Of a DNA stretch of 64,000 nucleotides, positions 1,010-28,887 are shown in pieces. Origin of the DNA: Anthopleura xanthogrammica (Eukaryota; Cnidaria; Anthozoa; Actiniaria; Actiniidae); NCBI GenBank assembly GCA_964019055.1, contig OZ025211.1, forward strand, positions 8,372,400 to 8,436,399, given 5' to 3'. The translations under genes were made by a program, and so were the position numbers. Within the stretch, counting starts at the first letter, position 1, and every line of letters begins with the position of its first letter. The notes under the pieces were generated by a model. It ran no database searches. It saw only the letters and a program-made list of their open reading frames with translations, and had not been told where the DNA came from.

Positions 1010-4000
1010 ATGAGTAGGTTAATGGTATTGCTTGTGTTTATCTTCAGTAACGGACAAGAATATTTCAATATCACTCGTCAACCTTCTTCACAATGGGTAG
1101 ATTTACCGGACGTCTTTCGAATTCCCCCTTCTCAGTGCAACGAAAGTAAAGGTGTTGAAGAATGTACTCAGATGGGTGGAAGAAAGATAGGAGACTGCCA
1201 GTGTGATTGTAATATAACCGATGATAGAGGTTTTGCGTACAAGAGTACGTTCAGGTTTTATCGTGGGAAATGGAAATGTGTGAACAACTCTCTGCTTCGG
1301 AAGCAAGCAGGTAAGCTGCTCATTCATATCCTGCGATCCTGTTTAGTGTTTTACTTGATAGACTCGTTGCATACTAGCTTTAATTTATGAACTCCTTACT
1401 AATCAAAAACTTTTGAGGCCGCTTTCACTCCGTTTTCGTCTCACCGAAAACGCATCGAAAGATTCGAGTTCACTCCCAGCGGTTTTCGAATAGCGCTTTC
1501 ATAAACGCAGATACGATCGGAAACAACGCAATATCATCATCGACGCATGCGCAAAACAGACTTGCCGGTGTGAATGACGTCAGCGTTTTCAAAAGCCATC
1601 GTCTTCGCTGTCTACACGTTTTCTAGAGAGCGTTTTACGTCAAGTGAAAATGCTCATCGTTTTCGATCGTTTCAGCATGGACGCAAGGCCAAGGCGCATC
1701 AAAAAGTATGCGTTGTAAAACGAAAACGGATTAGCGTGGACGAGGCCTTAGTCATATAGTCAAAAATTGTATATTAACTGATTGTCCTGTTATCGATGTT
1801 TCCTTATGCCGATATGTTAATCACAAAAGGTATGCAGCAACTTTGTGATTCAAACGAAGGTTAAAGTTTTAACTCTTCGACAACCACACACACAACCTTA
1901 CATTATCTTAATTCTTGTAATGTATATTGAATCATTTTGTAACTTTATTTAATATTTAAAAATGTGTGTGAATAAATAAAAGTCTAAGGAAGAGGATCAC
2001 GAGTAATGCTATCATGCTATTTTACTGTTTTTCTCTATTTATTGTTTACTCGTCCATTTCCTTATTATTATTGTTTTTAGGATGTCTCCAATTATCAGGG
2101 GAGCGTGATGATGACCCAATTAAGACATTGTCAAGAAATATCATGAACCCAGCATCTTCTAATTCTCCCAACAGCCTAACCGTACTAATCCTGAACAACT
2201 CCAGCAACATTCCATTACTTGCAGCCGATAATTCTAGTTACCTAAACTGCGAAGGCAAATGGGAGTCTTTTAATGGCAGCCGCCGTTTCCACCAAACATC
2301 CTATAGTGTCAAATTTAATAATGAAGTAAGCGATTTAGTTTATCATTCTGATTCCAGTCTTGTTTCTAAACATGCTATGTTGCTGCCGTCTAGGTTACAT
2401 TCTCCGTTAATCATTTTATCCAATACTGAATACTGCATGAGTACTGAATCATAGTGTGTTCTGTACACTCAATCACCCCTATATATTTCATACATAGTCT
2501 GACAGATGGGAACCTCGCCTCGAAGGTCGGATTATAAAAGTTGGCGTATTGTCAATGAATCGTTCATCAGTGAGCTGTCTTCTACTGAAGCTGGATGGTC
2601 ATCAAATCTGTAAGTCAACATGGCAGGGGCATGTTATTTTATATATTTCTTGCATCCTGGACATAAGTGTAAATTGCCAAGACTAACTATACAGTGCGCT
2701 GTTAGCTAAGATATATTAGACTAATACCCTATTCACACCGGACCCTTAAACATGTTTAAAGGTTGTTTAGTTGAACTAGTGCCCTCCCATCAGCCTGTAC
2801 GCCTAACTAAACAACTTTCAAACCTTCTTTAACTAAACTACTTTGGGGATGTGGTTTTAACCCTGTATAAAGATGGCAGCCAAACGACGAAGGAAATGCG
2901 ATAGATAAATTAATAAATACCAAGGTTAGTAGGTGTGAATTGGGATTAAGCAAGAAAAACTGCACAAGTCTACCGGTTGTAAAGCCATAAAACTCCGCGA
3001 CAGCTCATGCTTAATTTTCGAATTTTTTATCCGTCCTTGTAGTTGTCGCACTGAATAACACTCTGTCACAATCATCCTCTCACAAACGCAGCTTTTTAAA
3101 AAATGATTAGTTTTATAATCGGATTTGAATTTATAATTGTTTTGTTGGTTGCAAGAAGGCACTTCCCATTACCACTAGTCTTACCACTACAGACTTTTGT
3201 CGACTGTTGCGTTCTGCGTAAAATTTTGTATTTCAGGTGCCGAGCCACCGTTATCGTCATCGTCATCACCATCATCAGCTGTTGCGACGCCTACATTATC
3301 CGTTTCTACGCCTACTTCAACTTCATGTGGCAGCGAATGCAAAGTAAGGATAGACGATTGAACACCTAAATTTCTCAAACTTTCAAGACTGACTCACAGT
3401 TTTTGTGTGAATACCTTGACAGGTACAAAAACATTTAACATCTAACATCTATGCAATTTTGCTTCAAAGCTGGGGGCGGGTCATCACTTTTTCAACCGCA
3501 TTAAATAATGGGCCAAAAATGCTAATTCAATTTTAGTTTGGCCGCCCCCCTGTACTTTATGACCAGTTCCTTAAGAAGCCCTAATCATTGATATTAAGTT
3601 ATTTTCTAACCTTTTTAGACAACACCAACTCCACCCTCCGAACTACACAAAATGATAATCATGGTCCTGCTTGGAGGGGCAATACTCGGGGTGATTATAG
3701 TTGCTTCGGTTTTAATGAAGAAAATATCAAGACGAAATACAAGAAGGTAAACTAGCGTACTTGTAAAACGTTTACAAAACTTTAAATAGCGGAGTTTCTA
3801 GGGCTGCTAAATGCAAAGACAAAAACTAGCAATAGTCCCCTTGACAGTTCCCTGCGCCATCTTGAAAGGTAGCCTTTGTATCGAAGCGAGACAAACGGTG
3901 AGCTTACAATGATAGAGACATTGGAATAATTGTCCAAGATATTAAAAAAAGTTCTCTATCATTGCAAGGTCACCGTTCTTCCCGCTTCGATCCAACCGCT

Positions 4001-5159
4001 ACACCACCCTTGATTCATTTTCATCATTATACTTGTTCTCAATCGTATTATTATTTATTTTAGAAAGCGTATGATTAGACAGCCTTTTGTCCCACAAATG
4101 TCAGCCCTATCAGGTTCGTAAATAATTAGTAACTGATATTTGTTTAACTTAAAATTTATTCCTTAAATTAGTCTAAAGGCATTTTATTGTTTAACGATTC
4201 CGACTTGTCTGTAAATGCCAAATGACTAAAGGTTATTGATTTGAAGATTGATTGAGCCATTTTAATTCCTTTCTTTTTAACACTTTAAAATATATCAAAT
4301 TTCTTCATTAGTGCTAAATTATTATCAATATTTTTTCATAAGTCTCAGAAAATTATGAGTATGACCAATCTCTTGATGACCAAGCACGTCAGGAAGATGG
4401 ATACCTCTACCCAATAGATAATTATGCACCACGTGACAAGCGATATGAATTTGATAAACTGAACCCTAAAGGTGAATAAAAGGAGTACTATTCTCATATC
4501 CTTTCTTTTTCATTGTCAACACTTCTATTCTTCTTCTTCTTAAAAATTTGCATCTTAAAACAAATTTCATTGAGAAATTACTTAAGAAAATTTCTTCCAA
4601 CCAATTAACAGAAATGGATGGCAATGCTGAACGAGTGTATATGGAGGAATCCGGATCCTCTAAGGCCGCCGAGAAGTACAAAAACACCAACTCCTACAGA
4701 CTTCAAAATTCAATAACTGAAAACAAATCAAGTGTGGAAAAATTGCATAGTGTCTTGGAGAATCCATCGTCTGGTGGTCCTTCTGGGTGTAATGGGTACA
4801 AACCCAGCACCCCCCAGCCTGATCCCAACAACTCGGAGAGCTGCTGTTCAAGAAATATAAATAGATCTAAAGAGGAACCTATTTATAATGTCCTTGAAGA
4901 CCCTAGGGCATATAGTATATCTAGTAGTACCTCGGGGAAAAGCCGTAATAATACCTTACAAAACCAGAGATATGTTTCCATGGAAACTAATCAAGGAAAT
5001 AAGGATTACGTTTATAATGAGGCTGGACAGATAATCATAGAAAATTCTCCCCAACGAGACCAGAATTACCAGGAACTTAAATTTGATGGTCCGCGGTCTT
5101 CCCATGTCTACCAGTCGCTTTGCATTGCTGGAAAGAAATCAAAAGAGAAAGGGACATAG
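1010..5159 (+). CDS. Receptor array gene A: single-pass protein with ITAM-like tyrosine tail
   Basis: Eight exons inferred from splice sites and frame: 1010-1310, 2081-2325, 2498-2609, 3237-3343, 3619-3746, 4064-4113, 4349-4471, 4612-5159, giving 537 residues. Residues 1-15 form a short signal peptide. Exon 1 carries the array's Cys module (an ITR motif, then MGGRKIGDCQCDC, YKSTF, WKC). Exons 2-3 carry a second Cys module with GRIIKVGV and CLLLKLDG. Exon 4 is a Ser/Thr/Pro stalk. Exon 5 holds the membrane segment (about residues 267-288). The tail of about 250 residues has many tyrosines, including EPIYNVLEDP, DYVYNEAG and the final pair YQEL-x10-YQSL. Introns have phases 1,0,1,0,2,1,1. Inferred role: type I surface receptor that signals through phosphotyrosine. 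Ligand unknown and family not recognised. Exons 2 and 3 are less certain than exon 1 and the tail. Confidence 0.8.
1413..1750. repeat. MITE-like element in intron 1 of gene A
   Basis: The ends are inverted copies of a GAGGCC...CGTTTTCG sequence (left about 1415-1440, right about 1722-1748). The interior is CG-richer than its surroundings and repeats GTTTTCG words. Short reading frames inside it are chance. Confidence 0.65.
2727..2944. repeat. Small inverted-repeat element in intron 3 of gene A
   Basis: The ends CTATTCACACC (about 2730) and GGTGTGAATTGGG (about 2932-2944) are inverted, with AAACAACTTT/AAAGGTTGTTT words inside. Probably an eroded MITE. Confidence 0.5.
3879..3992. repeat. Inverted repeat in intron 5 of gene A
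   Basis: Two arms of about 40 bp: TATCGAAGCGAGA...CAATGATAGAGA at 3879-3925 is reversed at 3953-3992. It can form a long hairpin. MITE-like; no coding content. Confidence 0.65.
5067..5120 (+). other. ITAM-like YxxL pair of gene A
   Basis: Encodes YQEL, ten residues, then YQSL near the C-terminus. The same pair with 10-11 residues between motifs ends genes B, C and E. A classical ITAM has 6-8 residues between motifs, so this is ITAM-like by spacing only. Confidence 0.7.
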
Positions 5160-6598
5160 TATTATGTTTTCTTTTGCTTGTTTTTTTCGTCAATCAAAAT
5201 ATTACTTGTACCAAGAGAACATGAATAATCAGTTTTCTCTTGCTAGTACTCAAAACGTTGGAAATTTGATTGACGAAAGCCAAAGGCCCAGGCTACTGGA
5301 ATCAAAGCTAGTTTACTGGATTGCGTGATAAAGAAAATTATCATTTGTCAAGATACAAAATGTTTAAAAACAATACGCGTGATTGATGCACAGCGCAAAA
5401 CAATGCCCCTTTAATAGATCTTTTTACCGATACGGCGGCCATCTTGAATTCTAATGTTTTAAGTAAGACATTATGGAATGCCGAGGGGGCAATTGTTGGA
5501 ACATTTATAGTATGCACAGCTGTTAGAGTGTCTTTTTATATAAGTTTACGCTATCCAATGTGAAATACATTTTAAAAAAACAATTAAATTTGGTGCAGTA
5601 GTTGGAGCGATATGTGAAACACCAAAGCGTAAAATTATTTGAGAAAGTAACCCCGCCACTCTATGCTTTATGAATATTTCCAAGTTTCCCCCTTGGCATC
5701 CCATAATTTAAGATGGCTGCTGTATCGATAAAAAGGTATATTACGCTGGTGAAGGGGTCTATAAAATTGTAATCCCTCTCGAAAGTAGACAAACATAAAG
5801 AAACATCCTAAATTAAACGCCTTGTTGAAAATTTATAATTTAGCCAAATATTTGCTCACCAAATTATGTGATTGTTAGTAAACTTTGTAGTTCTTTGTTG
5901 ATCAGAACATGTTACTCTTCTAGAATAATTTCTGTTATGTTTATTTTGGTCTTTACCTGTTTAAACCGGTTATTAGCAGTTTTGATTAAGCAGTTTTGTC
6001 AACCATAGCAACCAATTATGATGATGCTTTTCTTCGACCCTTTTATGCTATCTCAGCGGTACCATAGTATGAAGGATGCATGCATTAAGTATGGTAAAGT
6101 GTAATATGAAAATTGAGAATGGCATTAAAATCTATATTGCCTTTTTAGCTCAACATTCCGCCATCAGACAAGAAAGTTCAAATTTGATGACGCACAAAAC
6201 TTTGACCGGATATTGAATTTGAAGTTTTTACTTATGAGTCATGGTAGCATGGAGTTCAACATTGAAATTGGTTTCGAACGTAGTTTGTTTGTCACTAGCT
6301 CTCGTGACTCGGTGCTGGATCAACTTTTATCCTTCATCTAATATAAGTTGGAACCTAGAAAAAGGCCTCAATTGTATACTATATATTGTTTATAAATTAG
6401 CTGTAAAATGTGTGTCGTTTGTGGAAGAAAATGAATATATTTCAGATTATTTATATTTGGCATTCTTGTGCTATTCATGAGCGCATGATAACCATTCAAG
6501 CAGAATACGAAAACAACAGTCGCAGATTCCAGAGCAGGAAGTATTCGATAAACGACTCGAACTAGCTTAGAGTGCCATTGAGTATAAACTTCAACATC
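5160..6598. other. Spacer between genes A and B
   Basis: No gene seen. It contains an inverted-repeat element (5405-5760) and short chance reading frames. No convincing poly(A) signal for gene A was found close to its stop. Confidence 0.6.
5405..5760. repeat. MITE-like element with GGCGGCCATCTTGAAT ends
   Basis: The left arm (about 5405-5455) holds CCGATACGGCGGCCATCTTG; its reverse complement, diverged, is at about 5703-5745. The element at 36344-36770 has very similar ends, so the two belong to one family. Confidence 0.7.
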
Positions 6599-9500
6599 AT
6601 GAAGAAGACGTTGCTAGCATTGTGTTTTGTATGTTATTGGGTTGTATCAATCGCCCAGGAGTATGTCATCACACGTCGAATGAAAAACGCATCAAATCCT
6701 TCGACCAATAACAATGCAGACCGCTTTCTTCTTCCTGCAACTCTGTGTGGCGAGAGTAAAGGTGCTACAGAGTGTCCTCTGATGGGAGGAAGAAAGATAG
6801 GAGATTGCAAGTGTGCTTGTGACACGAAAGATGAAAGAAACGTCACGTACAAAAGTACTTTTGGATTCTACGATGGAGAATGGAAATGCGAAAACAACAC
6901 AGGTCTGAGACACAATACAGGTAACATATATCTCTGTACAGGTTTATGTTAGTGTACATCGCATCATCTTAATATCAATTGTGCCTAATTACCTAAATAT
7001 AGTTAGGCCATGCAGTAGCTAGTTGTACGTTTCGCACTCGAAAAAGCTGTAAAGCACTCTCAGATCCGGTCCATCAAAAAAGATTACTTAGAACAAACAG
7101 ATTCTCAAAACCTGCAATATTCTAATCAATATAATTCGATGAATATCAGCTTCTTCTAAAGAGGAAGAAATTTGTCCCTCCAGAACAAGCCTTTATGCTG
7201 TTAAAGAAGGAATCAGTATTGCGTATCAAGCTACTTTAATTATTTAGCATTGCATGTACTGCTTGCTGTGTAAGCTTTCTTTTTCTTCCCTGCATCGATT
7301 GTTAATTTGTTTAGATATGAACTGCATGTTTTTCGCTTGTTTCAGGCTGCATATTATTTCCATATAATAGCATGAATGACCCTATTCCAACGATAAGCCA
7401 GTCGCACGTGAGCTTTAATTTGATGAACAGGCTTAATCATAGGATGCATTGCTATGATTTGGTGGAAAGGCGACCACACGAGAATTCAACATATCAAAAG
7501 TGCAATGGAACCTGGGAAGGTCTGAACAGAACTATTTTGGAGAAAAATTTCGATGTACATTGGCATTTTCTCGAAGGCCACCTTTTCGTAAGTCTAGCGA
7601 ACTCGCATAATCAAGAGTTTTGCAAGATTTGGTTAAATCCGAATTGTTGTTCTGATTTTGTAAAAATGCATATCGTATATTTTGTAGTTCCAATCAAGTC
7701 AGTTGTACCCTCTCCCTGCTGGTCGGCTGATCAGATTAGTATTTGAGTGTCGTTATCCAAGATTCTCGATGTGCTTCTTGCTCAAAGTAAATGGGAACTT
7801 GAAGTGTAAGTACATTCATTGATTTAAGCTATTTTTAACTATAAAGTCCAAAACATCATAGCATACCGTAAGTGCACTATATATTCTTGTCTTTAATATA
7901 ATACACTCTATGCAGGTTCTGTGCCGTCTTCTGAAACCACTACTTTCCGACCATCAACCACAGCAGCTGCTCAGTCTAAATCAAATCCATCATCTTCTTC
8001 ATTGCCTACATCATCAACCACAGCAGCTGCTCTGTCTAAGTCAAATCCACTATCTTCTTTGCGGCCTACTTCATCAAGGACAAACGATAATCTTAACGCA
8101 ACAACTCGTGCTTCGAGTTCTGGTACAAATCCCAGCACCTTGATTGCAGGCTCAGTATTGGGAGTGGTTGCTTTTGTTACATTAATTGCAGTCATCATAG
8201 TAATAGCGAGGAAAAGATATTTAAGGTACACTTGAGGCATGTCTATCAAGGAAATGATAAAATCAAAAATATCGAAAAGTGCAACGACTACTGCAATGAC
8301 TTGCTACTCCAAAAATATGGATCTGCATATTTTGAGGGTTGCTTTTTGAAAGATAGCATATTTTGGTTGCTTATCTGGAAAACAAATGTTATACGCGTAT
8401 CGTGAAAGCTATATGCACTATGCTTCCCATATTGCGCGATGAACTTACGTGTACACCTCTGTCGGACCTTCCTGCACCTCTGGAAGACCCAACACTTCCA
8501 TTCGACCCATACCTCAGTAGGTACGTCTGAGGTGCGCGTATCCACCAGATGTTCCAACACAGTTCTGTGGGTCGTCCAGAGATATGTGGGTTTACCAGAG
8601 GACTGCGTAGTTATCAGAGGTGTAGAGTTCAGCACCCGGCCGTCCAGCACGGCCATGATGGAAGATTAGAATGGGTACAGCAAAAGATGTAGTGCCAAAA
8701 CTGAATATTTAAAAATGACAAATGTTAATGCAGAATGAAAATCTGAGTAATTAGTTATGGGATATACAGTCCATATTGATAGTGATGATAATTTAAATAG
8801 GCAGGAGATTTATATATTGTTTTGTTTTATCCATCAAAATAGAAAACGAAAAACCACTAATCAAAGGCACCAAAATCCTGTTACAGGTAAGATAAAGATA
8901 TCATAGGAATGCATCATTTCCTTATTATCCTCATATTATTATTAGACTCATGCCGTAGCTTTTTAATTCTCGTGCGACAATTGGTGCGTAACAATGAAGA
9001 ATAGAAGAACGTTGTATTTATAGACCCCTTTCACGTGACGTCAGAATGCAGCTCAATTTGGAGGGCAAAACAAAAGAATTTTAATTTCCTGAGAATTGGA
9101 ACCAATTGTTTTGCCCTCCAAATTGAGCTGCATTCCGACGTCCTGCAAGGGGTCTATAAATGCATGATAGCTGAAGTAAAGTTAAATTTCGAAGTCAAAA
9201 GCAGACCCGAGTAAAAGTTAAACCTTGTTTGAACATTGCGATTTGAACAGGGCGTGGCTATTTTGGTTGGTACGATGCCTCTTAAAGTCCATGTTCGATT
9301 GTCGGGGACGTCACACTATTACTAATCGCACTGAATAATATGAAAACGGATTACTCATGAATAGAAGGTTGTATCAGCATGAAAGGGATCATCTGACGAC
9401 ACTAACATTTATGGTTTTGAATTCATATTTTGTTGAATTAAAGTCAAATCGTTAAAAAAAATGAAGAAATATGAATCTTAGTGATATTTTTGTTCAATAG

Positions 9501-10368
9501 TTGATGGTATATCATTAGAGTTGTCCTGTAGAAGAGAGAGCGAAGGAGACCACAAAATGCCAGCAAATATTCATACAACGACGCAACGTCCAAACTTGTA
9601 TACAGAGAGATCTCCTGCGAGTCATGGTAACAATATAGAATACCAATTGCTTTTGCCCTTTGGGAGTGTTTTTATGAAACTGGAAACAAATGGGCTCCCC
9701 CTGCCAAAGGGGTCTCAGCCCTCCCCTCCCTACGCACTTCCCACAACCCACACAATGACCACATTTATACACCTTATCGGTCTATAAACATAAACCAGTC
9801 TTCAAAATCCTCACCCACAGCATATACTATTCTTTCAAAGACGCGCAGTCACTTGTCACATAAGATTTTGAAAGTTAAATAGATTAATATATTTTTTAGA
9901 ATATAGGTAAAAATCAACACCACATGTTCACCTATTGTATATGTTACAAAAATCTAGGAATTTCATATTTTTCTTCTAGAAATTATGATTATTATCTATC
10001 AATCTTTCCCAGGTGAAGAGCTGAAGAAAGCGATACAAAGCAGGTTAAAAAATATTGGCACAGATAATCCAGGTTATGAAAACACTGAAAGAGTTGATAT
10101 TCCATCGTCTTCCGTAGCTATGCAACCGACATATAATCTCCCTTACGAGTACGCCAGAACAAAAAAAGCATTAAGACCACCCACAATGGCTCCACTAAAG
10201 GGTGGCAATGAACGAATATACGACGAACCCCATGCATCACCAAAGACTACAAAACCAAGCTATACATTACCAAATGTGGATAGAATATACCAGCAGCTTG
10301 ATCCTAGTAGTAGGAGGGAACAGAGTGAATATCAGACACTGGGTTTTAAGAACGAAACTGATGCTTAA
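6599..10368 (+). CDS. Receptor array gene B: single-pass protein with ITAM-like tyrosine tail
   Basis: Seven exons: 6599-6920, 7346-7587, 7688-7805, 7916-8225, 8843-8886, 9501-9626, 10013-10368, giving 505 residues. The ATG at 6599 is preferred to the one at 6572 because it starts a clean signal peptide (MKKTLLALCFVCYWVVSIAQ). Exon 1 has CGESKGATECPLMGGRK and a YKSTFGFYDG-WKC end. Exon 2 has DPIPT and NSTYQ-CNGTW. Exon 3 has YPLPAGRLIRLVFEC. Exon 4 joins a Ser/Thr stalk, which contains two copies of a TTAAA-SKSNP repeat, to the membrane segment (about residues 300-323). In genes A and E an intron separates stalk and membrane segment. The tail has DNPGYEN (an NPxY motif), RIYDEP and the final YQQL-x10-YQTL. 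N-glycosylation sequons are frequent outside. Inferred type I signalling receptor; ligand unknown. Confidence 0.85.
9017..9160. repeat. Near-perfect inverted repeat in intron 5 of gene B
   Basis: The arms contain TTTATAGACCCC and GCAGCTCAATTTGGAGGGCA at the left, reversed at 9106-9160. The whole stretch can fold into one hairpin. MITE-like; no coding content. Confidence 0.75.
10288..10341 (+). other. ITAM-like YxxL pair of gene B
   Basis: Encodes YQQL, ten residues, then YQTL, close to the C-terminus. It is the counterpart of the pairs that end genes A, C and E. Confidence 0.7.
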
Positions 10369-11143: not shown

Positions 11144-14100
11144 ATGGAGTTTTTCGTACTGATAGTCGTAATTCTAAAGTCGATAGACACTTTATCAAAT
11201 GCACAAGAACATTTCAATATTACTCGAAGATCTACTGTAAATTCTAATAATGATAAACATGGTTTAGCAGACTTATTCCAGCTTCCTCTATCTCGGTGTG
11301 GTGAGAGTAAAGGTGCTACAGAGTGTCCTCTGATGGGAGGAAGAAAGAAAGGAGATTGCAAGTGTGCTTGTGACATGAAAGATAAAAGAAACGTCACGTA
11401 CAAAAGTACTTTTGGATTCTACGATGGAGTATGGAAATGTACGAATAACTCTGCTCTGAGACACAATACAGGTACATTAATGGACGTTAGATTTCCCGTG
11501 TTTTAAATAAAGCCTGGTATAATCTTGTTGGTTTGCCAAAAAGGCGCTAAAGTAATATGATAATTCACTCAGGAAGAGCTTACAAGAAAGGAGAAGCAGC
11601 AATTCAGTTCAATTTCTCCCTCAGATTAATCCTTATAGTCTTAGTCATTAATGAAAATCTTTCTCTACTGTAACAATATTACCACAACGCTGTATAAAGC
11701 CGGCTATAAAAACTAAACATTTTGTTGCTAAGCTAATTTAATCAGAACTACTGTATGTTAATTCATCTGTTTATGATTTGATGTGCATTTGCAAGAAGGA
11801 AGGGAGGAAGAATGTAGGCATGTTTTTAATATTTTGTTGGATTAATGAGTTTATCAGCTTACTATTCAAGATACGGACACACGATGCAGCATTGCGCGCA
11901 ATGTTGCAGGCAATCGATGTTGCACGCAATGTTGCTGAAGCAGAAAGCCATCCTACTTCATCAATATTGCCTGCAATATTGCGCGCAATGCTGCAGAGTG
12001 TGTCTTCACCTTAAGTAAATATTGGTTATCAATCTTTCCAGGCTTATTCAATTAGTCCTGTGTCTATACATAGTTCTGACGGCTATCAATTTATTTAGGT
12101 TGTTTACTGTGGCCAATATCTGCTTCTTTGGACGATCCAATCCCAACACTAGGCAAATCAATACAGGGGTTTATTTTGAGATCGGGATACAATAGAGACA
12201 GACTTCGCTGCTTTGACCGCAGGGAACGTAACCCACACGAGAATTCAACCTATCAAGACTGTGATGGGACTTGGAAAAGTCTTAACAAATCTGCTATTCA
12301 GAGAAATTTCAAATTACAGGGATTTTCCATCTTTCAGAGAGTAAGTAATGTGTCAATACAATGCAAACAACTAACATTGCAACAATACCCATTGTGGATC
12401 AATATTTCCTTATTCAGACACAAGGTTTTTTCGTTTAGTTAAAGTACCAAGCAAGTCATTCGTACCCTCTTCCTTCTGGTCGGCTGATCAAACTGGTACT
12501 TGAATGTGATCATCCAAAGTCAATCGCTTGTTTGCTACTAAAAACAAAAGGAAAAGTCAACTGTAAGTATATATCGTAAGGGAATCAAAGGCAAAACCTT
12601 GTTCATAATCCAGGATATCAGTCAGTGTGTAGTATTTACTTGGTCAGCGCTGGATAAAAATCGACCCCTGAATCATTTTTTGTGCCATCAGCTATCCTCA
12701 GTAAAAAAACGTATGGTTAATAATCATAACCATCATTATTAATATTGCCATATCCAAATCCAAAACTTAACTGATATACACCGAATTGAAATATGGCGAC
12801 CAATTTGAATAACTATTGTTTTGGACTGACTAGCCTCATGTTCACGTGTAAACATCAAAGTAATTTTACATGTATGAGAGGCTATTCAGTCCAGAACAAT
12901 AGTTATTCAAATTGGTCGCCATATTTCGATTCGGTATATATGCTAGCCATTCAGTTTCACCAAGGCTGATTTGACTGTGGGGAATCGTGAAACTACACCT
13001 TTTTTCCATCCCAGAAATTTGTTATCCGTTTCTTCGATTATATCCGTTTAAGAATAGGGTAATAAACCAAATGCCAATCTTCTTGACTATATCAATATAA
13101 GTTTTTTCTCGAAAACAGGTCCTTTGCCGTCCATCTCAACAACTTCATTATCCACATCGATTTTAGCCACATCTGAGAATATATCCGCTAATGTAATTGC
13201 CAATTCAACAACGTCGACGATAAACGATTCGAATTACAGCAGCAGTACCACAGCCACCAATTGGCTGATTGCAGGCTCAGCATCAGGAGGTATTGCCTTT
13301 ATAATAATCATTACCGTCATCGTAGTGATAATCATGAGGACATGCAAAAGGTAAATTTAAGGGACTTTCATGTGAATAATCTGAAGCCTTCAATGCTTGA
13401 TTATCTAGTCAGCCTTAATCAGTGGGCTTCCTGTGGTAGGGTACTGATAAACGAGAGGGGAAATGCAATTAGAAAAGAAATCTTATCAGGAATGATGCGT
13501 CTTATAGCCCATTTTCGATATTTTGGTATCGAAAGTGGGCTACTCAATCCTCACCCTCAAACCAAGGCTCTTTTCCGAAAAAAGGAAAGGCAATGAAAAA
13601 ATACATGACTATGGATTCGCTAACTCAAAACAAAGAACCTTATTCTAAATGGAATGAAACGTGGTCTGAAATTGGAAAACATCATGTCAATGTAAGAAAA
13701 TATATTGTAACAGAAAAGTTAGAATTTAAATTAAGACGGATTATTTGTAACCTTGAAAATCTTCAATGCAGGAAAAACAAAGCAAGAAAAAGCGAAAGAA
13801 ATCCACAAAAAGGTAAAACATGCATTAGATAGTTTGGTGATATCGTGCACGATCTTTTAGAATTGAGGCCCATTTTGGTGGCCCCTGCGAGCCCTGTCGG
13901 TCATATTTCTTGTACAGCTGGACACAGGAAGACCCACCAGGGGGTCAGTGAAAAATGCAACTTCTCTGTTTTCCCACCTCAAAATCACTTGTTGAAAATC
14001 AATATGCTATCGAAGACGATCAAGAAAATCGAGTTTTGGAGTAAATATCGAGTGGATGAAAAAAACCTGTTTGATGCCCATACATTGCGTTATAATATGC

Positions 14101-17677: not shown

Positions 17678-20600
17678 ATGGTGACAAAACTTGTTCTAGG
17701 CTTGGTATTTCTAAAGTTCATGTTCTGTTTATGTGATGAAGAACACTTGAACATCACTCGCATGAGGTATTATAATTTGGGTGGAGATGAGTTTCAGATT
17801 CCTTCATCTCTTTATGGTGACAATGACAGCAAATGCTCTAACAAATGCTCTGCAATGGGCGGAAGGCGTACTGATTCACTTCGTGAAGTAAAGCCAGATT
17901 GTGAGTGCAAATGCAGACCGTGCAGTAAAACGTTTGGATTTTATGAAAGAAAATGGAAGTGCGCCATTGACGACGACATCAGTCGAAATGCAGGTTAGTC
18001 AGTCGTATGATTACTATGAAGTATAACAGCCGCCATGATACTCGGAAATACAAAAATAATAAAAAGAAGAATGATACGTAAATTTAAAAGAAGATGGCAG
18101 GGACTGCTCACAAGTCAGGCTCTCCCTTTGTAACTGCCAATCTTCATTAACTGGCTTAATAATAAAAACAGTGCATATGGCTATACTGAAATAGACATTT
18201 TTCTAAATTCTCCCATATTGACTGTTCAAGCAGAAATCATTTTTGAATATTAAAATAAAGGTAGTTTCGAGGGATGAATAATTTAACGTAGCCAAGAAAT
18301 ACAGCACTGAAATATGCGGGAGTCAATGTATTAACTACATGTTGTCTGAAAATCTAAAGTAAAAAGGGTTCATAAATGATGGTGGATTATTCACTTCTTG
18401 GTCGAATTATCTACCGTAACTAGTCCTTGAGCCAGCGTCCACCATGTATTTTTGGAATCCTCAGGGTTTCCACTTTCCAAAAATGTATAGTGGCATGTCA
18501 TAAATGTAGCTAATGGGGCTAAAAGGACGGTATCATGGTAATCATATTGAAATATATCGACTGATACTGGTTTATGGTTTATTCTGCTAGGATGCTCGAT
18601 AGTTACAAGCGCACTTTATGGAGATAATACAATTCCAACGATATCCTTAACATATTTTAACTTCTTGGAATTCGAGGACAAGGCCAGAAACAAAGATGGG
18701 AGATGCAACAGCTTTGGGTCAATACCGGAAAACAACCTCTCGTATTTTGCTTGTAATGGAGCCTGGAAACCACTTGACTATTCAATACTGGAGAATAGTT
18801 TTAGAATATCCATAGTACAAGTAATACAAGGGCCGAAGTTTACTGCAAATGTAAGTAGCACTATGTGAACTGTAATGCATTTGGACACATTATTTCGTGA
18901 ATAAAAAATCAAATTTTCTCTTCTTAATTTAAGAAGGTAAAAAAAACAATATGATCCTCTGCCCAAATGGTCTATAAGTCAATAGCCCCTGAGGCCGAAG
19001 GCCGAAACATGAGTGTGAGAGGTCTAATAGACCCTTTTCGAATATGGCGTCTATGACGTCAAACGAGGAGAATTAGAATGTCCCGGATGTCGAAACCCAA
19101 TGATTTCCACTAGCAGCATCCGGGACTGGAATGCCACGGATTTCAAAACACAATCATTATCACTCATGACATCCAGGACATGATCGGATTCGTCGTTTGA
19201 CGTCATAGACGCCATATTTGAAAAGGGTATATTTTTTAAATATTTTTTTTGGTTTTCAAAACTGGCCTTTTTCGCTATTATATAGTGGTCTATCACTAAT
19301 AGACCCCTAGTAGCTCAGCCTGAATGAGAGCGCAGGATTTGTGATAGACCATTAGTAGGTTTATACTTATACTAAATAGCCATTGGCTGAGAAACCCTTG
19401 GCCCTCATTCTATGATCGAATTGAGCGGAATGCAGAAGTGATTAACCCAAGGTAAACCGTTCGATATTGAGTTATTTTAAGCGTTCAATACCAAATGTGG
19501 TATTTTTCTTTGACTTTGTTTTTTTTTTATCAGTTGAAAGCTCTCTTAATTCAGAGGTTTCTTTGTTAAGTGACTTCAAACCAGCATACAAGGACCGCGG
19601 AGGCGGGAGGTGGGGGCTTAGGGGGGCTTAGACCTCAAATTTCAAGTCAGAAATGATTTTGTTACAAGTTGCATAATGCTTTGACACTGGAAATTGCATT
19701 TCCGAGAGCCTCAATTTAAAAGTTTTCAGGGGGTCAGCAGGCATTCACCTGGACCCCCTAAATTAGCCCCCCCCCCCATACACACACACTCTAAAAACTA
19801 TGCTCCATGGTCCCTGATCCTGATATACTACATAATCAACGTTAGCCGGTTAATGTTGTTTATCGTCGGTTCGCTGTCTCCTTCTTTTAAAGTACTACAC
19901 AGTAAATTAAACAACAAATTAAACGAGACTAAATCAGCAGTGAACCAGTGAATCAAACTTACAATACATATCCATGTATTTGTGTTTATGTAGATCATGT
20001 CGGCAATGTATCATCAGATTCATCCACTTCTTGCTGGAAGAATTATCAAAGTTGGAATTGAATGTAGATCACCTCTGAAAAGAACAAAGTGTTTCTTAGT
20101 AAAACTAGAAGGACAATTGAGCTGTGAGTATTCCAACTTGGCTACAAGGAAGGAAGGAAGGAAGGAGGGAAGGAAGGAAGGGAGGGAAGGAAGGAAGAGA
20201 GGGAAGGACGGAAGGGAGGGAGGAAGGAAGGATGGAGGAGGAAGTAAATACATGTATGTAAGGTAAGTAAGTACGTAAGTAAGTAAGAAGAGAGGCTAGA
20301 GCTCCATCCCTTCCCCAAAAAATAATTTAAACTAAGAAAGTAATGCTATACCTGACAAGCAATGATGCTACATTTCTAATGAACTAGGCTTTGATCGATG
20401 GATTAAGTTAGCTGGGTGGAATGACAGGGGATAGAGCTCCATCCCTTTACCAAAAACAGTTTAAACTAAAAAAGTAATATTTTATCTGACAAGCAACGAT
20501 GCTGAAAAGTAATAAACTGATGTTATTTCCCATAACACAGGCCCTACGGCAACATCTGTAACACCAACGCCATTCAAAACAACGACAAAGGAATCAATGA

Positions 20601-20770
20601 CAACAAAGAGCATGCCCACCGTACCGCAAAACTGGTCACCATTGCCGCCAAATTTTTGGGATGGAATACCAGGTACATGCTCAAATAGGGTCTCCCCGAC
20701 ACGAGGAAGCTGGAATTGCATTGCAAGTTCAGTTGCTGGATTGTTATTTTCAAAAATGATACTTGTTTAA
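17678..20770 (+). CDS. Receptor array gene D: ectodomain with a truncated membrane segment and no tail
   Basis: Four exons: 17678-17993, 18591-18850, 19994-20123, 20541-20770, giving 311 residues. Signal peptide MVTKLVLGLVFLKFMFCLC, then the exon 1 Cys module (CSNKCSAMGGR, CECKCRPC, KTFGFYERKWKC), exon 2 (C-NGAWKPL) and exon 3 (HPLLAGRIIKVGIEC, CFLVKLEGQLSC). Exon 4 is a Thr/Pro stalk that reads on into WNCIASSVAGLLFSKMILV and a TAA. This end aligns with the start of the membrane segments of B and C (W-IAGS...), so the TAA appears to cut the membrane segment and remove the tail. A GT at 20673 could instead splice out early, but I find no downstream membrane or tail exon before gene E. It may be a decaying gene, a secreted or weakly anchored decoy, or possibly GPI-anchored. 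Confidence 0.7.
18961..19361. repeat. Dispersed repeat with a second element inserted
   Basis: ATGGTCTA..GTCAATAGCCC..TGAGGCCGAAGGCC at the left and GGTCTATCACTAATAGACCC at the right match 38033-38294 in the same order. Here the sequence is interrupted by another inverted repeat (19029-19230). It lies in intron 2 of gene D. Confidence 0.75.
19029..19230. repeat. Inverted-repeat element nested in the repeat above
   Basis: The arms AATATGGCGTCTATGACGTC (19039) and GACGTCATAGACGCCATATT (19198) are exact inverses at the ends of a 200-bp hairpin. The uninterrupted copy at 38033-38294 lacks it, which marks it as a later insertion. Confidence 0.8.
20140..20283. repeat. GGAA-rich and GTAA simple repeats
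   Basis: (GGAA/GGGA)n from about 20148 to 20242, then (GTAA)n. Begins about 25 bp after the exon 3 donor of gene D. Reading frames across it are artefacts. Confidence 0.9.
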
Positions 20771-23143: not shown

Positions 23144-26100
23144 ATGTCAGTGCGAAGACGACAGGAATGGATTTCCCAGCTTTTTATTTTATTGCTGTTC
23201 CTTCGCCTAGGATCCTCTACAGATTACTTCAAAATTTTCCGTCGCCGTTCTGCGCAGCCAGGTAGCCAGCAAGATTCATTCCAGACTCCGCAGTCTCTGT
23301 GCGGGACAGCTAGTAATTACTATTGTCATGACTACGGAGCTCAACAGACAACGTGTACCACCTGTACCTGCCCACGTTCTAATGATACTTTCAGGTACAC
23401 GCATGCTCAGTGGAAATGCATTGGCAAAAGTGAACTTCGCCAGGAAACTGGTAATATATAAATTATTATTCTCTACTTTTATATGACCTATAATACACTG
23501 CAGTTTGGGGGAGGGGGAGGGTAACCAGGGTAAAAACCGCACATATCATGCTTAAACCATTAATTCAGTCAATCCCCTCCTAAGCAAACGTACGTTCTTA
23601 GGGTTGTCACGTTGTCACGTTGTCACACATCGTTTCTCCGTGACAACCATTACACGTCTTGGTAGAAGGTTACCAATCCCCGATAATTTGTGAACTTTAT
23701 ATTATAAATGTATTATCTGTAGTTTTTTTCTGCACATAATACATTTATCATGTCAACTACTCTCAAGGTCACGACATAAAGTCGTCTAGACTGTCGTGTT
23801 CAAAAGTGCGAAATTTAAAAACAACGACTTATGACTGTGAAGTTTCATTGCATTGTTTTGTAAAGTAGTCTGTTCACAGGCAATATTATAAAAGAAAAAA
23901 AAGCAACTTCCACCCCTTAAACTGTAATCTGAGAATGCATTCAGTTATAGAACAGCAAATAGTAAAATATGAATCTGTTTATACTAACTTATTCGTTTAG
24001 TAGCGGTCGACATCTTGGTTTTGTTGTCGCTTGTAGCCGTCTTCCAAAAGCTTCCAAAAGAGATTTTAAAAGTGAAAGAGCTTAAAAATTTACTCACATA
24101 TAAAGATAAAATTATAGAGAACACGTACCTTCCACCAATGTTATGCTCAAGCGTTTTTAATTGCGAAAATTTGGGATCAAATATTTCGTATTGTAAAGAC
24201 TATCAAACCTTCCCGTTCCATCCATTGCAAAACGTCGCGTTGTCATCGACGCGTGCGCATCATATGCAAATTAGGTCAACATAAGTGTGAATTTACTTCC
24301 GGTAGCGGTTTCCCAGGCCGCCGTTCGGGTTGTTTAAAGGTCCCTATTGTTATCCAGGGCGATATAATAAGCAAGAATTTTACTAACAGAGATTTTTTAT
24401 TGAAAACCCCAGGTTGTTTAGTAAGAGTAAGAGGCGAGCTGCAGTCCCAGCCTCTTCTCATCGTTCGGTCCGGAAGTCGATATTACATTGATCTACCGAT
24501 GGATCAAAGCTGTTCTTATAGCTACCCAACAGACACCTATTACCAAACATGCAATGGTACGTGGTTAGCGGCTGGTGGTATCGGAAGTGGATCCAGATAC
24601 TCTTTTCATGTTATCAAGCAACGGGGCAGATATCGGTATTGGTTGAGTGTATGTATCGTATACGGATTTTTTTTGTAAAAAGAACTTGTAATTTGTGACG
24701 TATTTCCGGGTCCAACTGCTCGCAAAAACCGCTAAAATCATGCAAGCGAAAAATGATATAACCTCCACCTGAAACAGCTAGAACTTTGGAAAACAAATCT
24801 TTCATGATGAAAAAGTAAGAAAAATATTATCGTTTATATATATCGTTTTGGACCCGGAAGTGGTTTTTTTCCATACGATTGACGTCACAATTAAAGCCGG
24901 TTGCATGATGCAGAATGAACATGAACAGAATGCTTCGGGAATTTTCTTTCTTGTTCAAATTTTAATTCCCTTATGACAGCACTAACACTGACATGCAATT
25001 CAGGTACTAGCTAAAAAAATAAAAGAAAGTGTGACAGGATTTCTGGTAGTGGTAGTAATCGACCCTATAATGGAAATAGCCAATTATAATTTAAAAACTT
25101 TTTTTCAATGTCATCCTTCTTTCTTTGCCTTCAGATCAAAACTGACAGTCAAGCAGTCAATGTCTTACAAGGAAGAATAATGAAAGTGAATATTACGTGC
25201 AGTACTAGAACCGGTGGTTCAATTCCTTGGAGCACGTGTTTCTTGTTCAAAGAATCCTACTTCAACACATCAATTTCATGTGAGTAACACTAAAACATGC
25301 ATGGACTATAGCTAAGGATTCTCGTTTGTTTATTCTCAAATTTATCATGAAACGTGCACAAATGGTAACTATAACAAATTCCTGTGGGTTCTCCGGTTTT
25401 CCTACATCCTCAATACTTACAAGCTAAATTCCAATTCTATCTGTGAGCCGTGCCCTTACGGCTTTTTCGGAGTTCCATATGTGAGTTAGCCATGCCCTTA
25501 CTTTGATCAGCCCAGAGGCTGTTTCAGGGTTCAATCTGTGAGTGAGCCGTGCCCTTACTTTGATCAGCCCAGAGGTTGTTTCAGGGTTTGATCTGTTGAT
25601 TTAGCCATGCCCTGACTTAGATCAGCCCTATGGTTGTTTCAGGGTTCGACACAATTTGAATCCCTCAATATTCATTTCTCCAGTCAAGCCATATGCACAC
25701 CGGTCATAAAATGTTGTAGATCATTCTTCTATGCAATTTAACGGATATTAACTTTTTTCATTTTGTATATACATTTGTTCAGGTCCTATTTACCAAGCTT
25801 TGATAAAAACTACTATAGCCACGCCCACGCCTTCGTTGTCCCCAAACTCTACTCTTGGTAAACAAACCGTTCAAAGCACGGAGAGTACTAGTACTAGTAC
25901 TTTATCCCCGACATCAACATTTCATGTAGTAAGTCTCGCTGGAAAAAAAAAACATATTTAGTTCAAAAAAAATTAATTGGATTCATTAATATTGATGTTC
26001 AAAATTGGATCAACCCTCTTCTTCCTTGTCCTTGTCCTTGTCCTTGTCCTTGTCCTTGTCCTTGTCCTTGTCCTTGTCCTTGTCCTTGTCCTTGTCCTTG

Positions 26101-28887
26101 TCCTTGTCCTTGTCCTTGTCCTTGTCCTTGTCCTTGTCCTTGTCCTTGTCCTTGTCCTTGTCCTTGTCCTTGTCCTTGTCCTTGTCCTTGTCCTTGTCCT
26201 TGTCCTTGTCCTTGTCCTTGTCCTTGTCCTTGTCCTTGTCCTTGTCCTTGTCCTTGTCCTTGTCCTTGTCCTTGTCCTTGTCCTTGTCGTCTCTCTTTTT
26301 GTTCTTCTTGTCCAGCAATTTTGTCAAAGATTCAGTCAGTGCTCTCTTCTGTTTCTTGTTCTTCTTTCTCTTATTTCCACCTTCATTTTTCACTGAAAAC
26401 ATTGAGCAAAACACAATCTTACTTTCCTCATTTATCTCCAGCTACTGACGTCATCTGCTGCTAATGTCACTCATCATCATCAATCAGATAAAGAGGCTAA
26501 ATCGAGCGTCGATAAAAAGATCGCTATCAGTGTATCAGCGGCAATAGGAGCCTTACTGGTTGTCATAGTAACAATCATTTGTATTGTTATTTACTGCAAA
26601 CGATGTAAAAGGTAAACTACTGGTCACCACTAATGAAATAATAATGGTGGCCTAATTAAATATTACTTTTTCGTTTTTCCCATTTTAAACCATGTGTCAT
26701 TCCATTTTTTTTGCAGAAAGAGTGCTGCCATGTACACCGCCGCACTTTACAACGCCTCTCAGGTTTGTCGCGATCTTCCGTTTCCTTGACAATAATTTTA
26801 ACATGTTCTGGTAATTATAGCCAATCTAGTTCTGCAGCACATTATTCTTTTTCTATAGGATCAGTGCTCTGCAGGGATTTACGACGAAACTAACATCAAT
26901 CTTCCATCCGCCTTGAAGTCTGCAAGTCTGATGAGTAAGTTGTATTAATCTGTGTTCCTAATATTTCTTAACTTAAGATAAACTTGTGAGGTTCTGGACT
27001 CGAACCTGACTCCGTGCCGTGACCGTGCGCGGGTTCTCTGTTGGTTGGATGATTAATAGCTACTTTGCGCACTATTGATTCAAATTACATTAAAATTTCC
27101 GCTGCTCGAACTACTTGCTTTATGCTGTGATTATTAGCACTCATGCAACGTTTGCTGTCTCATTGAAGTCACGCCATTCAAAGCGGTTTGCTGTCTTAGT
27201 GAATTCACGCCATACAAAGTGTGATGTCTTATCTGAGTCACGCACACCATGACGTCTCGTGCCTTACGACCGACTGAACTAAGAGAATAAATTATTTTAT
27301 TCGTATGCAAAACGTGGTTTGTGGATTATCTATTTTCCAACAGGTCACAGTAATCCAGCATATGGAAGGGGACAAGAATTATCAATCTCAGTCAAGTCTT
27401 CCCGCCATGCTTCCAGTCCATCTAGACTCGAGCTCCAACCAGATGAACCAGAAATGGTCGATGGCTCGAAGATCCTTGAAAACGAAAGCATGTTTACAGA
27501 CGCCACGGCAGCTCAACCGATCAAAAGGCGTAGAAACATGATTGTTGCATATGAAAATGTGATTGTCTTGCGTCAGGATACACCAAGAGGTAAGCACTGT
27601 ACAGGTAAATGTACTCTAAATTGCACAATAATTAGTATTTTGTGTCTTGAGTTTGAAAGCTGAGGTTCAATCTGTTCTAGGTACAAACAGCACACTATAA
27701 GGCATGTTTGCATTCTACACCCGAACGCACCAAGTTTGTTATTTCAGTATTGAGCAGTTTTCGTATGACTATGAGAAACTTACGGCACTGACTTCGCCTT
27801 GCTGTGACCGTGTCAGTACCGTCCGTGTATGAAAGCACTCGAAATTCCGTGCCGTGTCCGTGCCACGCAGTAACCGTGCCTTGTGCCGTGACTTTTCACA
27901 CTCATACTGAATCTGCTCTAAAGATCTATATGCAGTAGTTCGTATCACTTTCATATAAAGCGCGCAAAACTAGCTATGAGAGTGCAAGACAAAGGGGTTG
28001 GGACGCGGAACCTTGCCAGACCTTCAAATGGACATCTGCAAAATATCTAACCATTATTATCTCCAACTCGACCACCGAGACATGTCGTTCTTGCTGCGCA
28101 TGCTCCTGTTAATTGCTGAAATGATTAAATGACGCTAATTTTTCTCGTTACTTTTTTAGAAAGTGTCCCCGACGCCGAAGCATTCTACGAAAATCCAGGT
28201 ACCTACTCTCCTCATTATCACGTTCTTGAGAATCTCCGGGATTCTCGGGACGTCTCGAATAGCGCCTCGTACCCCTCGGTATCTCACATGGATCAAGAAT
28301 CACAAGGAGACTTTCATCATGATTCTTCAGAAGAGGAAGAAGATCAAAACTCTTATAATGATACCTATACGAACGACGACCAACCTATCTATACAAGTCC
28401 CGCGAGTCCCGTGAGCACCGCGGGTAGTATGCGGGATGGCAATTTCTCTTTTGAGCAACCGGATACAAATTATTACCAAGATGAGGAATATGAAGCATCT
28501 TTTGACGGTGCTCAAGAGCACAGCGAGAATTGGGACATTTATGCTAATTCAGAAGCAATACGAAATTCTCATTTGGAAGACGGCGCCATAAATAATCCTG
28601 GATATATGTCTGATGAAGAAGACGAGCGTAATACGAACCCAAATATATCGACCGACGAGCCTATTTATGACAACCAGATAGATTTAGATGACGGGCACAA
28701 TAAGTCAGGGGCTACCCCGTATGCACTCTTAAGGGACCAGCCCAAAGAGGGAGTGTATGAGGATTTGAGAGGGAATAAGTCTGGGGTAACTACCTCTGAT
28801 TATCAGTCACTCTCCCCTGTAACAACAAGAAAGAACCCCAAAACGAACAAACCCAAAATTAAGCCAAGACCAGCTAGAAAACAATGA
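23144..28887 (+). CDS. Receptor array gene E: largest and most diverged member
   Basis: Nine exons: 23144-23450, 24413-24648, 25135-25279, 25783-25928, 26442-26611, 26717-26762, 26859-26934, 27344-27589, 28160-28887, giving 699 residues. Signal peptide from MSVRRRQEWISQLFILLLFL. The exon 1 Cys module is diverged (CGTASNYYC, CTTCTCP) but keeps the WKC end and phase-1 donor. Exon 2 has TYYQTCNGTW; exon 3 has GRIMKVNITC and CFLFK. Stalk (exon 4) and membrane segment (exon 5, about residues 305-329) are separate exons, as in gene A. The tail is about 370 residues, acidic, with about 20 tyrosines: NPAY and NPGY motifs, EPIYDNQIDL, YALL and the final YEDL-x11-YQSL. Intron 4 contains a hexanucleotide microsatellite. 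Inferred type I signalling receptor. Confidence 0.8.
25441..25650. repeat. Minisatellite of about 70 bp, three copies
   Basis: GTGAGCCGTGCCCTTAC and CAGCCCAGAGG-TGTTTCAGGG recur three times in intron 3 of gene E. The sequence just before it (GGTTCTC-GGTTTTCCT, AAGCTAAATTCCAATT) recurs at 45460-45540, so it sits in a dispersed repeat. Confidence 0.75.
26024..26287. repeat. (CCTTGT)n microsatellite, 44 uninterrupted copies
   Basis: 264 bp of perfect hexanucleotide in intron 4 of gene E. It makes long open frames in three registers (Leu-Val, Ser-Leu, and Lys-Asp on the other strand) that are not genes. Confidence 0.97.
28756..28812 (+). other. ITAM-like YxxL pair of gene E
   Basis: Encodes YEDL, eleven residues, then YQSL near the C-terminus, matching the ends of genes A, B and C. 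Confidence 0.65.

What the first reader, a model, noticed from the sequence alone, without database searches (positions are those of the whole stretch)
1010..28887. Tandem array of five unrecognised receptors with ITAM-like tails
Five adjacent same-strand genes share exon-1 and exon-2/3 Cys modules, a Ser/Thr stalk and a single membrane segment, with the same intron phases (1, 0, 1, then 2 after the membrane exon). Four have tyrosine-rich tails. The ectodomain is not Ig, lectin, SRCR or any fold I can name. Fast-changing clustered receptors with phosphotyrosine tails are typical of immune or allorecognition loci. That role is inference.
Basis: partly seen in the sequence, partly recalled or inferred. 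Interest (0 to 1): 0.9.

Follow-up and report, generated by a model that had tools for sequence, protein, structure and literature searches.

The report
Huge gene array of ITAM-tailed receptors
The five genes are the end of a row of about thirty related cell-surface receptor genes with immune-style signalling tails and an outer part that matches no annotated protein family well, so they look like a fast-evolving recognition system of an unidentified animal.

Summary
The observation mostly holds, but the window shows only the 3' end. The same-strand array continues upstream: 32 exon-1 copies over ~200 kb (C6:8.197-8.396 Mb), plus 14 weaker exon-1 matches at 3.996-4.102 Mb of the same contig. 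Splice sites and phases recur. A membrane exon was found in 30 of 32 copies. A mini-exon lies between membrane and tail. Of the window genes, 4 of 5 have membrane and tail; gene 4 has neither. Tails are strongly enriched in strict ITAMs: 28 against 0.5 in shuffles; one upstream copy has six 37-residue ITAM-like units in tandem. Exon 1 is a distant relative of the Pfam Shavenoid-B N-terminal domain: array copies score below its cut-off, four sister-cluster copies above it. Exons 2+3 match nothing. Exon 1 is under purifying selection; exons 2/3 change at near-neutral ratios. Ectodomain and tail trees conflict, suggesting modular shuffling. Best reading: a lineage-specific, clustered, ITAM-type receptor family. 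An immune or allorecognition role is inference. The organism was not identified, there is no RNA-seq, and structure prediction of exon 1 was poor.

The parts
1010..1310 (+). gene 1 (R28) exon 1: signal peptide + Cys module D1 (distant Sha_B_N relative); ends phase 1
2081..2325 (+). gene 1 exon 2: first part of Cys module D2; ends phase 0
2498..2609 (+). gene 1 exon 3: second part of D2 (GRIIKV... C); ends phase 1
3237..3343 (+). gene 1 exon 4: Ser/Thr stalk; ends phase 0
3619..3746 (+). gene 1 exon 5: membrane helix; ends phase 2
4064..4113 (+). gene 1 mini-exon (juxtamembrane, phase 2 in / 1 out), predicted
4612..5159 (+). gene 1 tail exon: Tyr-rich, YQEL-x10-YQSL near C-terminus
   Evidence: whole model in frame
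6599..6920 (+). gene 2 (R29) exon 1: signal peptide + D1
7346..7587 (+). gene 2 exon 2 (D2 part 1); donor set by hand to the GTAAGT that aligns with gene 3 (second by score)
7688..7805 (+). gene 2 exon 3 (D2 part 2)
7916..8225 (+). gene 2 exon 4: stalk + membrane helix; ends phase 2
10013..10368 (+). gene 2 tail exon (acceptor phase 1 as read; the mini-exon before it not found; a phase-0 acceptor at 9958 scores higher): YQQL-x10-YQTL, YDEP
11144..11471 (+). gene 3 (R30) exon 1: signal peptide + D1
12099..12340 (+). gene 3 exon 2 (D2 part 1)
12439..12562 (+). gene 3 exon 3 (D2 part 2)
13119..13350 (+). gene 3 exon 4: stalk + membrane helix; ends phase 2
13772..13812 (+). gene 3 mini-exon (juxtamembrane), homologous to that of upstream copy R17
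15870..16261 (+). gene 3 tail exon: canonical ITAM YGSLVRNVPHVYGSL plus YQQL-x10-YQAL
17678..17993 (+). gene 4 (R31) exon 1: signal peptide + D1
18591..18850 (+). gene 4 exon 2 (D2 part 1)
19994..20123 (+). gene 4 exon 3 (D2 part 2)
20541..20770 (+). gene 4 last exon: stalk, short hydrophobic end, stop; no membrane helix or tail found
23144..23450 (+). gene 5 (R32) exon 1: signal peptide + D1 (divergent)
24413..24648 (+). gene 5 exon 2 (D2 part 1)
25135..25279 (+). gene 5 exon 3 (D2 part 2)
25783..25928 (+). gene 5 stalk exon
26442..26611 (+). gene 5 membrane exon; ends phase 2 as read
   Evidence: one search scores a GT at 26605 slightly higher
28160..28887 (+). gene 5 tail exon (acceptor phase 1; exons between membrane and tail not resolved): canonical ITAM YALLRDQPKEGVYEDL, four YxN

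Best explanation
A lineage-specific, tandemly amplified family of single-pass, type I cell-surface receptors. The outside is D1 (exon 1, a constrained Cys module distantly related to Sha_B_N), D2 (exons 2+3, Cys-rich, variable) and a Ser/Thr stalk that is presumably glycosylated. The inside is an ITAM-type Tyr tail. Most likely mechanism: ligand binding by the variable D2 clusters the receptor; a Src-type kinase phosphorylates the paired YxxL tyrosines; a tandem-SH2 (Syk-type) kinase docks and fires activation. Unequal crossing-over and exchange between copies reshuffles ectodomains and tails, giving a repertoire of receptors with different signalling strength (up to six ITAM-like units in one copy) or different adaptors. 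Shown by sequence: array, exon structure, membrane exon, ITAM statistics, conflicting ecto and tail trees. Inferred: expression, ligand binding, phosphorylation, kinase recruitment, the exchange process, a defence or self/non-self role.
For: 32 same-strand exon-1 copies; 32 of 32 exon-1 ends and 30 of 30 full-length exon-3 ends are GGT and TGT codons that give a GT donor in phase 1, 29 of 29 exon-2 starts have AG; with no phase imposed, the best exon-2 donor is phase 0 in 27 of 30 copies, the best exon-3 acceptor phase 0 in 24 of 30, the best membrane-exon donor phase 2 in 26 of 30; complete in-frame spliced models for genes 1 and 3; membrane exon in 30 of 32 copies; 28 strict ITAMs against 0.49 (max 4) in 1000 shuffles of 30 tail ORFs of 28 copies; six 37-aa units in R07, five with a strict ITAM; sister-cluster stretch L035 with D1, D2, membrane exon and YQELKDKQVVSEYQSL; pN/pS e1 0.52 (p=3e-10), e2 0.88, e3 0.86; ecto and tail trees conflict at supported nodes.
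Against: No transcript evidence. Copies are related, so motif and splice-site counts are not independent. YxxL is also an endocytic signal. Pooled pN/pS is not above 1, so relaxed constraint is not excluded. Only 2 of 4 window tails have strict ITAM spacing, and 12 of the 30 tail ORFs have none (R01-R04, R09, R11, R13, R25-R29); these may signal otherwise. A Syk gene could not be looked for: the genome search stayed unreachable. R06 and R08 tails are split over two frames and may be defective. Several exon-3 acceptors score poorly.
Confidence: 0.62

Rival explanations
1. Specifically an allorecognition locus: polymorphic receptors that read self and non-self at contact between individuals, as Alr in Hydractinia or the fuhc genes in Botryllus, with unrelated ectodomains but the same ITAM logic.
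For: Clustering, near-neutral exon 2/3 evolution, ecto/tail conflict and ITAM tails. Published parallel: unrelated receptors of Hydractinia and Botryllus carry ITAM/ITIM-type motifs (PMC12065747, passages read). Exon-1 variants close to R27/R28 and R30 but not identical exist on public contigs (P0002, P0001), so other alleles, copies or sibling species exist.
Against: Equally expected for pathogen-sensing receptors. No segregation, fusion or population data; organism and life style unknown.
Confidence: 0.25
2. The YxxL motifs are endocytic or sorting signals of adhesion or matrix receptors related to Shavenoid, not immune-type ITAMs.
For: YxxL fits the YxxPhi sorting consensus (recalled); D1 is related to Sha_B_N, named after an insect protein; its part in hairs and trichomes is recalled and seen only in search listings.
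Against: The paired spacing is kept at x7-x8 in the strict motifs and x10 near the C-terminus of genes 1-3, and whole ITAM pairs are the unit of tandem repeats; sorting needs no pairing.
Confidence: 0.13
3. Mostly decaying copies: an old array drifting neutrally, with few functional genes.
For: Exon 2/3 pN/pS near 1; R16 and gene 4 lack membrane exons, R06 and R08 tails are split over two frames, R02's exon 3 is cut short, three extra exon-2 fragments exist.
Against: 30 of 32 copies give stop-free D1-D2 models, the phase-1 splice sites are intact in all placed cases, exon 1 is under purifying selection, ITAMs are kept.
Confidence: 0.05

Closest known systems
Hydractinia Alr allorecognition gene family (41 genes; PMC11999971 and PMC12065747, passages read)
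   Same: large gene family in one complex of an invertebrate; ITAM/ITIM-type motifs reported in candidate genes
   Different: Alr ectodomains have V- and I-set Ig domains; here no Ig match, D1 is Sha_B_N-related and D2 unassigned; tandem ITAM repeats of this kind are not mentioned in the passages read
Botryllus fuhc receptors (PMC12065747, passages read)
   Same: receptors in one locus, a family of them with ITIM/hemITAM motifs
   Different: Ig or sushi ectodomains there
Vertebrate clustered ITAM/ITIM receptors such as KIR, LILR, Fc receptors and CD3 zeta (recalled)
   Same: modular exon structure, mixing of ectodomains and tails; CD3 zeta has several ITAMs in one chain
   Different: Ig or lectin folds, adaptor-borne ITAMs in many; no sequence relation found here
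Pfam Sha_B_N PF23328 (Shavenoid isoform B N-terminal domain)
   Same: position and Cys-rich character of exon 1; four exon-1 copies of the sister cluster exceed the curated cut-off, in the same reading frame as the exon-1 hits
   Different: all array copies tested stay below the cut-off, and so do both L035 sister copies that I could read (no match at E<=1); D2, ITAM tail and clustering are not part of the family definition

Membership tests
ITAM-bearing receptors | YxxL/I-x6-8-YxxL/I in the cytoplasmic tail | tested here: met
   window genes 3 and 5; 28 strict motifs in 30 tail ORFs, shuffles 0.49. Genes 1 and 2: x10 spacing only
ITAM-bearing receptors | phosphorylated tyrosines recruit a tandem-SH2 kinase | not testable with these tools
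   needs biochemistry; a search of the genome for SH2 domains did not complete
Single-pass type I membrane protein | signal peptide and one membrane helix followed by basic residues | tested here: met
   hydrophobic start of e1 (by eye); membrane exon in 30 of 32 copies, by hydropathy, not by a dedicated predictor; gene 4 does not meet it
Pfam Sha_B_N (PF23328) | score over the curated cut-off (24.4 bits) for the window/array copies | tested here: not met
   8 of 21 array members match at E<=1, best 0.0027; where scores were printed 11.2-16.4 bits; window genes 1 and 2 not listed at E<=10, gene 5 13.8 bits
Pfam Sha_B_N (PF23328) | score over the cut-off for homologous exon-1 copies of the sister cluster | tested here: inconclusive
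   met for 4 of the 14 sister-cluster matches (C6:3996390, 4002127, 4007218, 4019840), same frame as; not met for the two L035 copies. The L036 domain at 2.2165 Mb has 45 bits, but the array profile does not separate L036 from its shuffles
Immunoglobulin superfamily / lectin / SRCR | match to the Pfam domain or a solved structure | tested here: not met
   no such family listed for 3 proteins at E<=10 or for 21 members at E<=1 (the 8 families matched by most members are shown); PDB sequence searches none significant. Fold not tested: no usable structure model
Hydractinia Alr family | Ig-like V/I-set ectodomain | tested here: not met
   no Ig match by sequence; a disguised Ig fold in D2 is not excluded
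Allorecognition determinant | genotype controls fusion or rejection | not testable with these tools
   needs crosses or population data

The most novel reading that the evidence does not exclude
A major self/non-self or immune receptor locus of an animal lineage, in which a previously unknown two-module ectodomain (Sha_B_N-derived D1 + new D2) has been recruited to ITAM signalling, independently of Ig and lectin receptors. Copies carry tandemly multiplied ITAMs as gain controls, and ectodomains and tails are swapped by recombination in a repertoire of about 46 copies in two clusters on one contig.
Probability: 0.35. Interest if true: 0.9.

Novelty: new variant of a known kind. Interest (0 to 1): 0.74.

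Why it matters
If true, it adds one more receptor architecture that has reached ITAM signalling by its own route, supporting the view (PMC12065747, passages read) that recognition systems use unrelated receptors but one signalling logic. The modular array (constrained D1, variable D2, interchangeable tails, one to six ITAM units) would let one test how receptor repertoire and signal gain evolve, in an animal whose genes of this kind were not found in the protein set searched here.

Tried and rejected
Tried without result: single-sequence and profile searches for full-length relatives in the 5.8-billion-protein set, which includes UniRef entries (none of 2930 candidates at E<=1; one spurious hit, P0006, E 0.3, of 6801; the gene 2 and gene 5 rows of that profile lack unresolved exons; such searches reach only relatives that share short exact words). 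Searches of the PDB by sequence (best E 0.97 and 0.26, no relation). AlphaFold of exon 1 alone with 10 rows: pLDDT 59.9, pTM 0.43; Foldseek 83 matches at E<=10, none at E<=0.001; not used. Spongilla lacustris (248.7 Mb) and Eunapius fragilis (218.91 Mb) do not fit; Rhopaloeides odorabile (291.63 Mb, 17 chromosomal pseudomolecules) is near in size (starts of abstracts in listings only). Contigs numbered up to C21 reach 8 Mb here, which speaks against 17 chromosomes only if contigs are numbered by size, which I do not know. That the animal is a sponge was a guess and is not claimed. Literature: six searches for ITAM or allorecognition receptors of sponges or other invertebrates and two for Shavenoid listed no paper on this family; they cover only the open-access library, and the other two searches were for genome notes. 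Dropped before counts: five ORFs (three near R27 in a retroelement-like stretch, one each near R13 and R29) were left out of the tail set. In one search, 19 copies in 6 groups of close relatives were used; R12/R13 and R29/R30 were left out as too divergent, the other copies had no close partner or were near-identical to one. Sites set by hand: gene 2's exon-2 donor and gene 3's mini-exon are the second by score.

Rejected: gene-model artefact (phases and splice sites recur through the array); Ig, lectin or SRCR by sequence; filing exon 1 of the window as a Sha_B_N member (below cut-off).

Full report
Where it is. A search of the genome with the exon-1 module of gene 2 gave 45 matches, all on contig C6 and all on the + strand: 31 between 8.197 and 8.390 Mb and 14 between 3.996 and 4.102 Mb. 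Of the 14, two have E below 0.001 on their own and twelve lie between 0.0027 and 0.11. I fetched 8122400-8372399 and 10 kb downstream and searched this 324 kb, both strands, with profiles built from the window exons: 32 copies of exon 1 (R01-R32; the window genes are R28-R32), 35 matches to exon 2 (three of them 23-residue fragments) and 31 to exon 3, all + strand.

Gene structure. Exon 1 holds the signal peptide and a six-Cys module and ends in phase 1. Exons 2 and 3 hold a second module, split in phase 0, and end in phase 1. All 62 donors that could be placed (32 after exon 1, 30 after exon 3) are GT, and all 29 acceptors placed before exon 2 are AG. The conserved Gly or Cys residue at these places fixes one letter of each pair, so the free evidence is the other letter: 32 of 32 codons GGT and 30 of 30 TGT. 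In one search and only phase-0 sites between exons 2 and 3 and phase-2 donors after the membrane helix were considered. As a control I let the best-scoring site win in any phase, near the chosen places: phase 0 for the exon-2 donor in 27 of 30 copies, for the exon-3 acceptor in 24 of 30, for both in 22 of 30, and phase 2 for the membrane-exon donor in 26 of 30. Several exon-3 acceptors score poorly. 30 of 32 copies give stop-free spliced D1-D2 models; R06 and R11 lack a full set, R02's exon 3 is cut short, and the exon-2 starts of R01-R04 are less certain. The commonest Cys number is 12 (18 of 30 copies). A membrane exon with basic residues after the helix was found in 30 of 32 copies (20, 10 more by a looser search; not in R16 and R31 = gene 4). 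As read, the tail exons of genes 1, 2, 3 and 5 need a phase-1 donor, and for the 15 tail ORFs with a scored acceptor the best one is phase 1 in 14 (gene 2 is the exception), so at least one small exon must lie between. Candidates were sought in 13 copies: homologous ones in R30 (gene 3) and R17, in R07 and R09, and in R20 and R23; unpaired ones in R08, R11, R26 and R28; no candidate in R22 and R29 (gene 2), no clear one in R32 (gene 5). Genes 1 and 3 then give complete in-frame proteins.

Tails. 30 tail-like ORFs from 28 copies contain 28 strict ITAMs, against a mean of 0.49 and a maximum of 4 in 1000 shuffles. The looser spacing (6-12) gives 53 against 1.2. For the four window tails alone it is 2 against 0.09 (p=0.005) and 6 against 0.2. 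12 of the 30 ORFs have no strict ITAM. The copies are related, so this shows conservation of the motif, not 28 independent origins. PxYxx[LIV] is enriched as well (55 against 3.7), YxxM (14 against 4.0) and ITIM-type motifs (25 against 13.6) less, YxN not (27 against 23.8). In R07 the tail has six units of 37 residues, each starting with an ITAM-like pair (five strict, one with YxxP first); units 1-5 are 86-95% identical in DNA, the sixth 55-61% over the same length. R06 and R08 have similar repeats, split over two frames.

Evolution. In six groups of close copies (19 of the 30 modelled), exon 1 has pN/pS 0.52 (p=3e-10), exon 2 0.88 and exon 3 0.86, neither different from 1 (p=0.15 and 0.30). 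The difference between exon 2 and exon 1 is p=3e-4 with all pairs, which are not independent, and p=0.05 with disjoint pairs. For D2 single pairs exceed 1 (for example R17-R18 1.73, R07-R09 1.75), others are well below (R01/R03/R04 pooled 0.43). So exons 2/3 are the variable part; positive selection is possible but not shown. The ectodomain tree groups R17, R18, R19 and R22 (100/100), while their tails fall apart: R17 and R18 lie with R20, R21, R23, R24 and R30 (99/99), R19 and R22 pair elsewhere (99/96) in a weakly supported group. R27 and R28 are sisters by ectodomain (100/100), but R27's tail pairs with R26's (100/100). Tails were assigned by position between exon-1 copies, and the tree program warned of long branches in both trees. 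Exchange of 3' parts among copies is the simplest explanation.

What the ectodomain is. No Pfam family reaches its cut-off for three spliced proteins or for the 21 aligned members. Yet Sha_B_N (PF23328) matches 8 of the 21, best E 0.0027. A search of the whole genome with PF23328 gives nine matches, all on C6, eight over the cut-off. Four of these are exon-1 copies of the 4.0 Mb cluster, in the same frame as. The 14 control genomes, not named in the output, gave none. Against it: two sister-cluster exon-1 copies that I could read (L035) and three array copies out of the six peptides include only weak or no matches (L035 none at E<=1; gene 5 13.8 bits, R04 16.4 bits, R26 none). The best match elsewhere (2.2165 Mb, L036) scores 45 bits, but the array profile does not separate it from shuffled sequences, and the profile comparison gives 57% over 27 columns. 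So the link runs through the sister cluster and stays distant. L035 shows the same architecture in the sister cluster: two exon-1 copies (3.7e-18, 4.6e-16 with the array profile, small search space), exons 2 and 3, a membrane exon, and a tail with YQEL-x8-YQSL. Exons 2+3 match nothing. The profile of 21 ectodomains against 5.8 billion proteins found five ORFs on short public contigs, all with exon 1 (P0001-P0005; E 9e-24 to 2e-12). P0002 shares even intron sequence with R27 and R28 but differs in coding residues, so variants outside this assembly exist. The full-length profile found none.

Interpretation. Secretory start, Cys modules, stalk, one helix, Tyr tail with conserved ITAM pairs and array growth by duplication point to a clustered receptor family that works like ITAM immune receptors. 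Review passages state that candidate allorecognition receptors of Hydractinia and Botryllus are unrelated yet carry ITAM/ITIM-type motifs (PMC12065747; passages read), and that Hydractinia has 41 Alr genes with Ig domains (PMC11999971; passages read). The present family would be a further case with another ectodomain. Whether it serves defence, allorecognition or adhesion cannot be decided here.

Limits. 

Noticed in passing
window 59998-62646 (-): Single-exon 883-residue reading frame with ankyrin repeats (Ank_2 4.4e-50) and a Mab-21 nucleotidyltransferase domain (PF03281, 4.8e-7), the cGAS-like kind by memory: possibly an innate immune sensor close to the receptor array.
   Followed up: partly
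G000:C6 near 1.219, 2.2165, 2.299, 2.308 and 7.603 Mb: All nine Sha_B_N matches found in this 290 Mb genome lie on contig C6; these five are outside the two arrays. Why the family stayed on one contig is unexplained.
   Followed up: partly
window about 2718-2950 (gene 1, intron after exon 3): Dispersed repeat of about 230 bases; 38 other genomic places listed at 91-96% identity, a lower bound, SINE-like.
   Followed up: no
window 26023-26288 (gene 5, intron before the membrane exon): Perfect hexanucleotide array TCCTTG x44 that makes long stop-free low-complexity frames on both strands.
   Followed up: no
L010 about 5105-8948 (between R27 and R28): Retroelement-like stretch with a reverse-transcriptase-like and a recombinase-like reading (recognised from memory, not searched; frames).
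   Followed up: no
window 46205-46792 (-), 52478-52744 (+), 44052-44900 (+): Ribosomal S12-type gene (PF00164, 7.5e-23), a Kelch-repeat exon (muskelin-like by memory), and a 283-residue reading frame with no Pfam match over its cut-off.
   Followed up: partly
upstream of R14, R15 and R16 (local array, C6 about 8.272, 8.281 and 8.292 Mb): Three identical 23-residue fragments of exon 2 (GCSLILLSDRTKDS...) without the rest of the module: remnants of further copies.
   Followed up: no
P0001-P0005 (short public contigs): Exon-1 variants of this family on public contigs of 1-1.8 kb (sources lgn and jgi); P0002 shares flanking intron sequence with R27/R28 but differs in coding residues.
   Followed up: partly
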